A program made the position numbers and the translations under genes. The notes below the pieces were generated by a model. The model did not search any database. It was not told where the DNA came from and was given only the letters and a program-made list of their open reading frames with translations. From Anaerolineae bacterium (GTDB lineage: Bacteria > Chloroflexota > Anaerolineae > DUEN01), in NCBI GenBank assembly GCA_025060615.1, contig JANXBS010000006.1, positions 120,934 through 184,194 on the forward strand: DNA of 63,261 nucleotides, read 5' to 3'. Shown piece by piece: positions 22,230 to 25,459 of the stretch (positions are counted from its first letter, which is position 1; each line of letters opens with the position of its first letter).

Positions 22230-22410
22230 AGCCCTCTCCTTGATCTCATCCAAGCGACCCGTGATCCACTTCGATTTTGACCGCAACAGGATTATAACAC
22301 ACCTCATCCGCTCGCCCAAGTCGCGGAAGAAAAACAGAGCCGTCTGCTCGGCCCTGCCTCCAAATAGCTACCTGGTGAGCGATGGATCTTAGAAATAGGC
22401 CATTTGGCGG

Positions 22411-22439
22411 TTGACGAGACGCGAGAGATGATATACAGT
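22411..22439 (+). promoter_or_regulatory. Sigma70-type promoter before the structured RNA
   Basis: TTGACG (22411-22416) is followed 17 bases later by TACAGT (22434-22439); TATACA at 22432 is an alternative with a 15-base spacer. Transcription would start near 22446, just before the structured stretch. No ORF starts downstream for ~480 bases. Confidence 0.5.
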
Positions 22440-22702
22440 AATATCAAACTGGTTTAAACGGAGCGCAGCGAGATGAGGCTACTTCCAGTAGCCATGTGGA
22501 TGCTGTTTGCGGTGCAAGCCATCCAGTGCATCTGTCCCAGGCGGGGGCGTTAGCATCCTCGTCTGGGAGGTACTTGCTGCGTAGTAACTGAAGACCAACC
22601 GACGAGTCGGTGCGACCTGCCCCCGCAGTGAGGAGTGAAACGCGCGGGGTGCCGGCGTCGAGAGCAAGCGAAGAGCTCAGGGCCAGCCCCTGGGCTCTTT
22701 TC
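22440..22702 (+). ncRNA. Candidate structured RNA (leader or small RNA) of unknown class
   Basis: This is a ~260-base non-coding stretch between a promoter and a Rho-independent terminator. Visible pairings are GGCTACT/AGTAGCC (22477-22493), GGATG/CATCC enclosing TTGC/GCAA (22498-22524), CCCAG/CTGGG (22536-22567), and ACCGA/TCGGT (about 22598-22611). The 8-base GCGGGGGC (22541-22548) is complementary to GCCCCCGC (22619-22626). Because the first arm lies in the loop of CCCAG/CTGGG, this forms a pseudoknot or an alternative fold. It sits upstream of the sulfite-reductase gene. It shows no RNase P, tmRNA, SRP or 6S hallmark. It could be a riboswitch-type leader or an independent small RNA. Confidence 0.45.
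22672..22701 (+). terminator. Rho-independent terminator of the structured RNA
   Basis: AGAGCTCAGGG pairs with CCCTGGGCTCT (11 bp, one G-U) around a 5-base loop, and the run TTTT follows. It ends the RNA candidate, or acts as its attenuator in front of the sulfite-reductase gene. Confidence 0.75.
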
Positions 22703-22730
22703 ACATCTCCGGCCGGGGCTCCTGTCAGGT

Positions 22731-22766
22731 GACGCCAACGCCGACGTCGTCGTGTTGGTCTTTTTC
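22731..22766 (+). terminator. Possible second terminator
   Basis: CCAAC (22735) pairs with GTTGG (22754-22758), enclosing a CG-rich inner stem, and is followed by TCTTTTTC. With the preceding hairpin it makes a tandem terminator. From 22767 to 22931 there is only one more small hairpin (GCGGC/GCCGC near 22790) and no gene. Confidence 0.5.
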
Positions 22767-22931
22767 TTATGTCAATGTAGTCTTATGGCGGCTGTGCTGC
22801 CGCAAAACCACCCCCGATGGAACCCCATCCCCGCGTGCGAGGGCGGAGCCAGGAATGGCTCACTTACAGTGGGTTTGGCCTCTTCAGTCGGGCGGTGAAT
22901 TGCTAAGTGACGAACAAATGGAAGGGTGGAT

Positions 22932-24563
22932 ATGGATCGCGAACCAATGGCGGAGATCTATCGCTTCGCCGAGCTGATTGAGCGGAGGCGACGTGGCGAG
23001 GTAGACGAGGAGGATTTCCGTCGTTTCCGCCTGCAGCACGGGGTCTACAGCATCCGCGGCCAAACTGATGTTCAGATGATACGGGTGAAAGTCCCTCACG
23101 GCGCCCTGACGGCCACGCAACTGGAGCGCCTGGGGGACATCGCCGAGCGGTTCACCTCAGGGATCGGCCACATCACCACCCGTCAGGATGTCCAATTCCA
23201 TTGGGTACGTCTGGAATCGGTACCCGAAGTGCTGCGCCTGCTGGCCGAAGTGGGGCTCACCACGCGCGAGGCGTGCGGCAATGTCGTCCGCAACGTGACG
23301 GCTTGCCCGTTGGCAGGGGTTTGCCGCACCGAGGCCTTCGATGTCACCCCCTACGCGGCTGCGCTCTCGCGTCACTTGTTGCACAACCCCATTTGCCAGA
23401 CGTTGCCGCGCAAGTTCAAAATCGCCCTCTCCGGATGCGCCACCGATTGCGCCATGGCCGGCATCCACGACATCGGCGCTGTAGCGACGGCTCAGGAGGA
23501 AAACGGTACGGCTCGCTGGGGATTCCGGCTGTAAGTGGGCGGCGGGCTGGGGCCGGCGCCACGGGCAGCGCAACTGCTGGAGCCGTTCACGCCAGCCGAA
23601 GACCTCATCCTGACGGCCACAGCAATCGTGCGCGTGTTCGACCGCCTGGGCAACCGCCAGAACCGGATGCGGGCTCGCATGAAATTCCTCATCGAGGAGC
23701 TGGGCATCGAAGCGTTTCGCCGGCTGGTCTTCGAGGAACGGCGAGCGCTGTGGGCATCCTGGCCTGACGGATCGCCATCGGCACCAGAGGTTCAAGAGCC
23801 GGCGGCGCCGGCTGTAATCCCACCACGGGCGATTCACTCAGCTCCCCCTGGGTTCGATATCTGGCGAAGGACGAACGTGGTGGCCCAAAAACAGGCCGGC
23901 TTTTACGCAGCTTACGTGACCGTACCCGGAGGCGACCTGATGGCAGCCCAGTTCCGGGCTCTGGCGACCCTGTTGTGGGAACTTCCAGGCGTGGAACTGC
24001 GCACGGTGATCACGCAGAACCTAGTCTTGCGCTGGGTGCCAGAGGCCTGGCTGCCGGCCCTCTACGCAAGGCTGGTAGAAGCGGACCTGGGCTGGCCCGG
24101 GGTGCACGGCATCGGTGATGTGGTGGGCTGTCCTGGGGCCGATACCTGCAACCTGGCCGTGACCTATTCACATCGCCTGGCGCTAGAGCTGACGCGGCGG
24201 CTGGCGGAGCGCCCAGATGTGGCCCTGGCGGATGAGCTGAGAGATGTGACCATCAAGATCAGCGGCTGCCCTAACTCGTGCGGCCAGCACCACATCGCGA
24301 CTATCGGGCTATACGGCGCCGCGCGTAAGGTGGGCGAGCGCCAGGTGCCGTTCTACCAGCTCTTGCTGGGCGGCAGAGCGCACGATGGGGAGGTGATCTT
24401 TGCCAGGCCTATCCTGCGCATCCCTGCCCGTCAGGTGCCGGAAGCCATCTTCCGGCTGGTGGACGCGTATCGAAGCGAGCGGCGGGATGGCGAATCGTTC
24501 GTGGACTGGCTCGAACGGAAGGAGGCGGGTGACGGGGATACGGACGAAACCCTGCAATGGTGA
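22932..24563 (+). pseudogene. Ferredoxin-type sulfite/nitrite reductase interrupted by one in-frame TAA
   Basis: Siroheme/4Fe-4S reductase that would reduce sulfite to sulfide (or nitrite to ammonia). The reading frame runs from ATG 22932 (AAGG 6 bases upstream) to the stop at 24563, but codon 201 (23532-23534) is TAA. It falls where homologues have Tyr in GFR-h-Y-VGGGLG. Frame and homology continue at the next codon. First part: ferredoxin-like half (~1-105), then CPLAGVC (C125, C131) and GCATDC (C169, C173). Second part from GTG 23535: GCPGADTC and GCPNSC (C199, C205, C245, C249 of that part). The stop lies inside a catalytic domain rather than at a boundary, which favours inactivation. Readthrough, reinitiation at the abutting GTG, or a sequencing error remain possible. 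Confidence 0.85.
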
Positions 24564-24955: not shown

Positions 24956-25174
24956 GTAAATGAGCCAGCTATCGCGCCCCTGGAGATCCCCGTTGCTGAT
25001 TTGGAGGCTGCTACGCCTCAGGTCTGCGTGGCTGCTAGCTTTGGGAAGGACAGCGTCACGGTGCTTCACATGCTGCGCGACATCAAGCCCGACATCGAGG
25101 TGATCTATCTGAACGCGGGATACGAGTTCCCGGAGACCTTGATGTTCATCGAGCGCTTGAAGCAAGATTTGAAC
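24956..25174 (+). pseudogene. cysH: Truncated PAPS/APS reductase (cysH-like) fragment
   Basis: The frame reads a PP-loop start (VCVAASFGKDSVTVLHML) and continues IKPDIEVIYLNAGYEFPETL, the nucleotide-binding half of phospho-adenylylsulfate reductases. Homology stops after ERLKQDLN, about 60-75 residues in. The rest of the ~230-residue enzyme, including the C-terminal Cys region, is missing. The frame then runs into the YHS gene without a stop. The start is unclear: no ATG with a ribosome site occurs in this frame. I read it as a 3'-deleted gene of the same decaying locus. Confidence 0.7.
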
Positions 25175-25279
25175 GGGCCGGCCGTTGGGCAGGCACTGCC
25201 AAAGAGAGAGGAGAGTGCGGCATCCATGTGGGCTCTGCTTACGGCTTTGAATACCAAAACCAAGGAAAGGCGCGTTGTC

Positions 25280-25459
25280 ATGGCGAAAGATGTCGTTTGC
25301 GGGATGGAAGTAGACCCTAAGAAGGCGGCTGGGAAGTCCGAATATCAAGGGCAAACGTACTACTTTTGCTCCCGCGGCTGCAAAGCGGCATTTGACAAGG
25401 AGCCACAGAAGTACGTCGGCCGGGCACAGGGCCACGGCGTTCATCGCAGTCACTATTGA
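25280..25459 (+). CDS. YHS-domain protein
   Basis: A 59-residue protein from ATG 25280 (AAGGAAAGG ~9 bases upstream). It carries a single YHS domain: DVVCGMEVDPKKA, then YQGQTYYFCSRGCKAAFDKEP. The Cys residues (VCGM and FCSRGC) are the usual metal- or heme-binding positions. It ends in a His-rich tail (GHGVHRSHY). YHS proteins go with metal ATPases and metal stress; here it is in frame with, and just behind, the cysH fragment, as if a deletion brought them together. Confidence 0.8.
   Translation: MAKDVVCGMEVDPKKAAGKSEYQGQTYYFCSRGCKAAFDKEPQKYVGRAQGHGVHRSHY

What the first reader, a model, noticed from the sequence alone, without database searches (positions are those of the whole stretch)
22411..22702. 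Unclassified structured RNA with a possible pseudoknot and terminator
A promoter, several perfect stem-loops, a long-range 8-bp complement (22541-22548 with 22619-22626) that reaches into another hairpin loop, and an intrinsic terminator lie in a stretch with no coding. It is upstream of a sulfur-assimilation gene and fits no RNA class I know. It could be a new riboswitch-type leader or a free small RNA.
Basis: partly seen in the sequence, partly recalled or inferred. Interest (0 to 1): 0.8.

Follow-up and report, generated by a model that had tools for sequence, protein, structure and literature searches.

The report
Cysteine leader-peptide attenuator of sulfur genes
The stretch is not a riboswitch: it encodes a 26-amino-acid leader peptide with two cysteine codons inside a switchable RNA hairpin set, a cysteine version of the classic trp-operon attenuator that recurs before cysteine and sulfur genes across a class of Chloroflexota and seems not to have been described there.

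Summary
The region has a promoter, a foldback hairpin, the long-range complement (22541-22548 with 22619-22626) and terminators. No Rfam family matches. But TGCATCTGT (22527-22535) is Cys-Ile-Cys near the end of a short ORF, 22473-22553: MRLLPVAMWMLFAVQAIQCICPRRGR*. Homologues show that this is a ribosome-mediated attenuator. In 96 leaders from the same class, C-x-C is kept in 95 while the middle codon takes 16 forms. An in-frame uninterrupted ATG lies upstream in 92, against 6 and 17 in the other two frames. The antiterminator pairing A:A' covaries strongly, and in 81 of 94 testable leaders A' is also locked into a terminator hairpin with a U-run. Downstream genes are cysteine synthase (51), rhodanese (17), sulfite reductase (11), DUF4395 (7) and other sulfur genes. 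The window's own genome has four such leaders; 107 of 396 sampled class genomes have one. Predicted logic: a ribosome stalled at the first Cys codon leaves A free, A:A' forms and transcription continues; a ribosome at the stop covers A and the terminator forms. Known kind (trp/his-type attenuation); apparently new for cysteine with intrinsic terminators and for Chloroflexota. Nothing was tested experimentally.

The parts
22411..22439 (+). promoter-like site, -35 TTGACG and -10 TACAGT, spacer 17
   Evidence: 1 found, 0.1 expected in shuffles
22460..22463 (+). GGAG, possible Shine-Dalgarno of the leader ORF, 9 nt before its ATG
   Evidence: sequence; about half of the homologous leaders show such a motif
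22473..22553 (+). leader peptide ORF MRLLPVAMWMLFAVQAIQCICPRRGR*
   Evidence: frame conserved in homologues; ATG in frame 92/96 against 6 and 17 in control frames
22527..22535 (+). control codons TGC ATC TGT (Cys-Ile-Cys)
   Evidence: Cys kept in 95/96 leaders, 16 different middle codons
22535..22569 (+). P1, local hairpin (anti-antiterminator; segment 1:2), 5' arm overlaps the last codons of the leader ORF
   Evidence: seen in 95/95 leaders with 77 different outer arm pairs (shuffles of this GC-rich stretch also fold often, so the arm-pair variety is the evidence)
22541..22563 (+). A, 5' strand of the antiterminator
   Evidence: covariation
22600..22626 (+). A', 3' strand of the antiterminator, also sequestered in the terminator structures
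22671..22701 (+). internal terminator-like hairpin followed by TTTT
   Evidence: also in several relatives with the sulfite reductase type of leader
22593..22605 (+). B, 5' arm of the main terminator (GACCAACCGACGA), overlaps A'
22748..22766 (+). B' and U-run: 3' arm of the main terminator (TCGTCG.GTTGGTC) then TTTTT
22932..24563 (+). nitrite/sulfite reductase hemoprotein gene downstream, with an in-frame TAA at 23532-23534

Best explanation
The region is a cysteine-specific, ribosome-mediated transcription attenuator in front of a sulfite reductase operon. RNA polymerase transcribes a short leader ORF whose 19th and 21st codons are Cys. If Cys-tRNA is scarce, the leading ribosome stalls at the first Cys codon; it covers the RNA only to about position 22539 and breaks the foot of P1. 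Strand A (22541 onward) is then free, pairs with A' (22600-22626) and keeps A' out of the terminator, so the sulfur genes are transcribed. If cysteine is plentiful, the ribosome reaches the stop codon (22551) and covers A, so A' falls into the terminator structure (B:B' plus U-run, and the internal hairpin) and transcription stops. Without translation P1 should form first and hide A, giving termination. Shown by comparison: the reading frame, the Cys codons, the A:A' helix, the terminators and the sulfur regulon. Inferred: ribosome stalling, the direction of the response, and that the RNA is made.
For: Reading frame: in 56 distinct leaders an ATG within 60 nt upstream, uninterrupted, exists in 55 in the Cys frame and in 4 and 10 in the other frames; the stop is exactly 24 nt after the first Cys codon in 46; the stop is TAG, TAA or TGA. 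In 40 further hits found by a nucleotide covariance model, 39 have C-x-C and 37 the ATG, against 2 and 7 in control frames. Cys codons are kept while the middle codon takes 16 forms and the first Cys codon is TGC or TGT. Antiterminator: 143 cells with changes on both sides of A:A' pairs against 54.5 in shuffles and at most 24 in slid registers. Terminator: 81 of 94 leaders have a hairpin plus U-run whose stem includes A'. Switch logic by folding transcripts cut just after A': A:A' is optimal in 56/56 with a ribosome at the first Cys codon and in 0/56 with a ribosome at the stop. Regulon: of 96 leaders, the first recognised downstream gene is cysteine synthase 51, rhodanese 17, sulfite reductase 11, DUF4395 7, OAH/OAS sulfhydrylase 4, others sulfur-related 3. 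Four leaders lie in the window's own genome, before sulfite reductase, two rhodanese-type sulfurtransferases and, less directly, an ABC transporter operon.
Against: No transcript, ribosome or reporter data. About half of the leaders lack an obvious Shine-Dalgarno motif before the likely start. Folding without a ribosome favours A:A' in 51/56 at the point where A' emerges, so termination without translation relies on P1 forming first. Full-length equilibrium folds do not separate the states well in all leaders. A few variants (L061, L063, L064) lack a clear terminator. In this genome the sulfite reductase gene carries an in-frame stop, so the regulated operon may be decaying or the assembly may be wrong.
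Confidence: 0.92

Rival explanations
1. A metabolite-binding riboswitch (for cysteine, O-acetylserine, sulfide or similar): P1 is an aptamer helix stabilised by the ligand, with A:A' as antiterminator.
For: Alternative helices with a terminator and a consistent sulfur regulon would look the same at the level of structure.
Against: The invariant unpaired letters are codons of a frame that nearly always has a start and a stop. The stretch between promoter and Cys codons varies freely in length (from about 3 codons upward) and sequence, leaving no room for a conserved aptamer. The middle codon is free. No Rfam match.
Confidence: 0.03
2. A T-box leader that reads uncharged tRNA-Cys.
For: TGC is a Cys codon; T-boxes control cysteine genes in Firmicutes (established knowledge; PMC6004538 listed).
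Against: No T-box match even at E<=10. Two Cys codons in a translated frame with a stop, and no conserved upstream stem I, are not T-box features.
Confidence: 0.01
3. A free small RNA ending at the 22702 terminator.
For: Promoter and terminator bracket about 260 nt.
Against: Homologues sit upstream of sulfur genes in the same orientation and carry a leader ORF.
Confidence: 0.02
4. A true attenuator by descent, but no longer useful here: the downstream sulfite reductase has an in-frame TAA and the PAPS reductase gene is truncated and joined to a YHS domain.
For:: the in-frame stop lies in the only NIR_SIR gene of the genome, and only the N-terminal part of PAPS reductase is present.
Against: This is a draft assembly and a one-base error would explain the TAA. 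The leader itself is intact in frame, helices and terminators. Three other leaders exist in the genome. This changes the usefulness, not the identity.
Confidence: 0.15
5. The leader acts through Rho or through blocking of translation start rather than through the intrinsic terminator.
For: Variants without a clear U-run terminator exist (L061, L063, L064); mycobacterial cysteine leaders lack terminator hairpins (PMC1262725).
Against: 81 of 94 leaders do have an intrinsic terminator that includes A'.
Confidence: 0.06

Closest known systems
Classical leader-peptide transcription attenuators (trp, his, leu, ilv operons of Proteobacteria and Actinobacteria)
   Same: short ORF with codons of the product amino acid, competing 1:2, 2:3 and 3:4 helices, U-run terminator, biosynthetic genes downstream
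   Different: cysteine codons in a C-x-C pair; the antiterminator strand lies within the last codons of the leader ORF itself; a phylum where PMC2965389 (2010) knew none; one element used for a whole sulfur regulon, in tandem in some genomes
Polycysteine leader ORFs of mycobacteria (Canestrari et al. 2020, known here only through citing papers) and of Propionibacterium and Bifidobacterium (Seliverstov et al. 2005, PMC1262725)
   Same: leader ORFs with Cys codons near the stop, upstream of cys genes; reported as cysteine-responsive in mycobacteria
   Different: those have runs of Cys codons, are leaderless in mycobacteria and have no conserved terminator hairpins (PMC1262725); here C-x-C, with antiterminator and intrinsic terminator conserved
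ilvB-II motif of Corynebacterium (Narunsky et al. 2023, PMC10272879)
   Same: a conserved 'structured RNA' that turned out to be an upstream ORF working by attenuation
   Different: branched-chain amino acids, another phylum, unrelated sequence
T-box and S-box leaders of cysteine and methionine genes
   Same: regulate the same pathway by antitermination
   Different: no leader peptide; no match to any such Rfam family

Membership tests
classical leader-peptide transcription attenuator | short translatable ORF between promoter and first gene | tested here: met
   ATG in frame in 92/96, control frames 6 and 17
classical leader-peptide transcription attenuator | control codons for the end product of the operon, near the stop codon | tested here: met
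   C-x-C in 95/96, followed by cysteine and sulfur genes
classical leader-peptide transcription attenuator | mutually exclusive antiterminator and terminator helices supported by covariation | tested here: met
   antiterminator covariation (alignment fitted to the structure); terminator sharing A' in 81/94
classical leader-peptide transcription attenuator | intrinsic terminator with U-run | tested here: met
classical leader-peptide transcription attenuator | expression rises when the amino acid or its charged tRNA is scarce, through ribosome stalling | not testable with these tools
   needs reporter, term-seq or ribosome profiling
mycobacterial-type polycysteine leader ORF | run of consecutive Cys codons, leaderless start | tested here: not met
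   C-x-C with a separating codon in 95/96; a 5' UTR of about 25 nt is predicted in the window
riboswitch of a known class | match to a known aptamer family | tested here: not met
riboswitch (any) | conserved ligand-binding core independent of translation | tested here: not met
   conserved positions reduce to codons and the A:A' and P1 helices; upstream part free in length and sequence
T-box | T-box sequence and stem I specifier architecture | tested here: not met
   no T-box match at E<=10

The most novel reading that the evidence does not exclude
A C-x-C-x-R-R-G leader peptide is a widespread cysteine sensor shared by several phyla. Outside Chloroflexota, MAGs labelled Armatimonadetes, 'Bacterium HR32' and an unclassified bacterium carry leaders such as (K)PRECICPRRG* or FAPRQCICPRRG before MoeB/ThiF-like, TusA-like, sulfonate-transport, DUF4395 and sat-sulfite reductase genes, with a short hairpin after the Cys codons and no evident terminator. 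One ancestral leader would thus have been adapted to transcriptional and to translational or Rho-dependent control, possibly with a role for the nascent peptide itself.
Probability: 0.25. Interest if true: 0.75.

Novelty: new member of a known kind. Interest (0 to 1): 0.62.

Why it matters
It explains how a large, mostly uncultured group of bacteria probably controls sulfur assimilation and cysteine synthesis: one translation-sensing leader reused before many genes, as a regulon that needs no dedicated protein regulator. It adds cysteine to the amino acids with fully built (antiterminator plus intrinsic terminator) attenuators and extends that mechanism to Chloroflexota. It marks genes of unknown role (DUF4395, M67 peptidase, YeeE-type transporters) as probably cysteine-regulated. 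It also warns that conserved structured leaders without an Rfam match should be read in three frames before they are called riboswitch candidates.

Tried and rejected
Rfam at gathering score and at E<=10: nothing relevant. Riboswitch reading: held until the homologues were aligned and the conserved TGCATCTGT proved to be TGY-NNN-TGT in an open frame; then dropped. T-box reading: no match. Static pseudoknot reading: P1, A:A' and the terminator share strands, so they are better taken as alternatives. Leader peptide against Pfam and NCBIfam: no family. Equilibrium folding of whole leaders as proof of the switch: not decisive. P1 against shuffled sequence: not decisive, because 63% of shuffles of this GC-rich stretch also fold. 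Pattern and model hits L006, L012, L020, L021, L059, L067 and most non-Chloroflexota pattern hits (e.g. L079, L081) were rejected as coding or chance.

Full report
What is there. The window 22411-22766 lies between a site-2-protease-like gene on the minus strand (upstream end at 22319) and a nitrite/sulfite reductase gene on the plus strand (from 22932). A promoter-like site sits at 22411-22439. The transcript folds better than shuffled sequence (z -3.44). Two terminators follow: an independent hairpin at 22671-22701 with TTTT, and a 13-pair stem, 22593-22605 with 22748-22760, followed by TTTTT. Nothing in Rfam matches.

How it was identified. A nucleotide search of 60 class relatives with the region gave only two short hits, of 28 and 29 nt, around TGCATCTGTCCCAGGCGGGGGCGTTAGC, one before a rhodanese gene and one before a cysteine synthase gene. 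A pattern search of 396 class genomes found matches in 26 genomes against 4 for the reversed pattern. The true ones lay before cysteine synthase, rhodanese, DUF4395 and sulfite reductase genes, with tandem copies in L017 and L018. A covariance model of the long-range helix (R1) found 31 genomes in a 400-genome sample of the phylum, including four copies in the window's own genome (C6, the window; C7; C9; C18). A second model (R2) found 107 of 396 class genomes, 74 of 234 good-quality ones. Loci shared with named records of the pattern scan place the group in Anaerolineae of the Chloroflexota (inference from matching contig lengths).

Why it is a leader peptide. The conserved TGCATCTGT reads Cys-Ile-Cys. 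In 56 distinct leaders the first and third codons are always Cys while the second takes ten forms; the first Cys codon is TGC 48 times and TGT 8 times; the stop falls 24 nt later in 46 leaders and is TAG, TAA or TGA. An uninterrupted in-frame ATG lies within 60 nt in 55 of 56, but in only 4 and 10 in the other two frames. The ATG was not part of any search pattern. Forty further loci found by R2 gave C-x-C in 39 and the ATG in 37, against 2 and 7 in control frames; R2 was trained on sequences that contain the Cys codons, so the ATG is the independent part of this test. The peptide can be as short as MLTCMCLRRG* (Ornatilinea apprima). The window's version is MRLLPVAMWMLFAVQAIQCICPRRGR*, 22473-22553, with GGAG nine bases before the ATG. 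The part before the Cys codons varies freely in length and sequence, which leaves no room for an aptamer.

The switch. Three sets of helices share strands. P1 is a local hairpin whose 5' arm is the end of the ORF (95 of 95 leaders, 77 different outer arm pairs; shuffles also fold often, so the variety of arm pairs is the evidence). A:A' joins the last codons and the stop region with a downstream strand in every one of 56 leaders; its pairs covary (143 cells with changes on both sides, 54.5 in shuffles, at most 24 in slid registers; the alignment was fitted to the structure, which favours it somewhat). The terminator includes A' in 81 of 94 leaders. With transcripts cut just after A', A:A' is the best fold in 56 of 56 when a ribosome is placed at the first Cys codon, in 53 of 56 at the second, and in none when it stands at the stop. 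The ribosome footprint used, 15-16 nt beyond the first base of the P-site codon, is general knowledge, not measured here. Without a ribosome A:A' is also the best fold in 51 of 56, so the default state depends on P1 forming first.

What it controls. For 96 leaders the first recognised downstream gene is cysteine synthase 51, rhodanese 17, sulfite reductase 11, DUF4395 7, OAH/OAS sulfhydrylase 4, and PAPS reductase, M67 peptidase and a TsuA-like transporter once each; three had none. Serine acetyltransferase (cysE), the M67 peptidase or PAPS reductase often follow as second gene. The expected response is therefore more transcription when Cys-tRNA is short. This direction is inferred from the trp and his precedents.

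Comparison with what is known. All structural features that define a classical attenuator and that could be tested are met; ribosome stalling and the response to cysteine are untested. Cysteine leader ORFs have been predicted in Mycobacterium, Propionibacterium and Bifidobacterium, without terminator hairpins (PMC1262725), and were reported as cysteine-responsive attenuators in mycobacteria (Canestrari et al. 2020, seen only as a citation; the paper itself is not held). A survey of 2010 knew leader-peptide systems only in Proteobacteria and Actinobacteria and added Firmicutes (PMC2965389). No paper in the library holds the phrase 'cysteine riboswitch', and searches for this element in Chloroflexi found nothing. 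A 2010 comparative survey of attenuators (Lopatovskaya et al.) is cited but not held, so an earlier mention cannot be excluded. The nearest story is the ilvB-II motif, a conserved RNA that proved to be an upstream ORF (PMC10272879).

Beyond Chloroflexota. The pattern scan also brought leaders such as MKGLCKPRECICPRRG* and FAPRQCICPRRG in records labelled Armatimonadetes, Bacterium HR32 and an unclassified bacterium, before MoeB/ThiF-like, TusA-like, sulfonate-transport and sat-sulfite reductase genes, several per genome. These carry a short hairpin instead of the long antiterminator and show no evident terminator. Contaminated bins cannot be excluded, but the shared and distinct architecture argues against it.

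Limits. No expression data. The sulfite reductase gene of the window, the only one with NIR_SIR domains in this genome, has an in-frame TAA, and PAPS reductase is truncated; whether this is decay or an assembly error cannot be told.

Noticed in passing
window 23532-23534: In-frame TAA inside the nitrite/sulfite reductase gene (ORFs 22926-23534 and 23535-24563 are in one frame; relatives such as L252 and L068 carry an aromatic residue at this place). It is the only NIR_SIR gene found in the genome.
   Followed up: partly
window 25001-25459: ORF that joins the N-terminal third of a PAPS reductase domain to a YHS domain; looks like a truncated cysH gene fused to a neighbour.
   Followed up: partly
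L063 5045-5130 (own genome, C18:39544-39629): An inverted element GCATCTGTC ... GACAGATGC with GCGGGAGC/GTGCCCCCGC that matches the model on both strands, about 1.9 kb from a true leader; no clear leader ORF was established. Role unknown.
   Followed up: partly
L017, L018, L068 (and G188:C306, L259): Two attenuators in tandem before one sulfite reductase operon, each with its own leader peptide.
   Followed up: partly
L071, L095, L100, L138, L077, L215-L219: CICPRRG-type leader peptides outside Chloroflexota before sulfur-carrier, sulfonate-transport and sulfate-assimilation genes, with a short hairpin and no clear terminator.
   Followed up: partly
L220/L282 (Thermoflexus, C1): Leader MARACICPRRGWEIAARFGLAPR* before a YeeE/YedE (TsuA-like) transporter gene, suggesting thiosulfate uptake under cysteine control.
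   Followed up: no
L014, L015, L042, L077, L248, L257: DUF4395 genes, in some cases followed by a thioredoxin-like gene, recur under this cysteine leader; points to a sulfur role for DUF4395.
   Followed up: no
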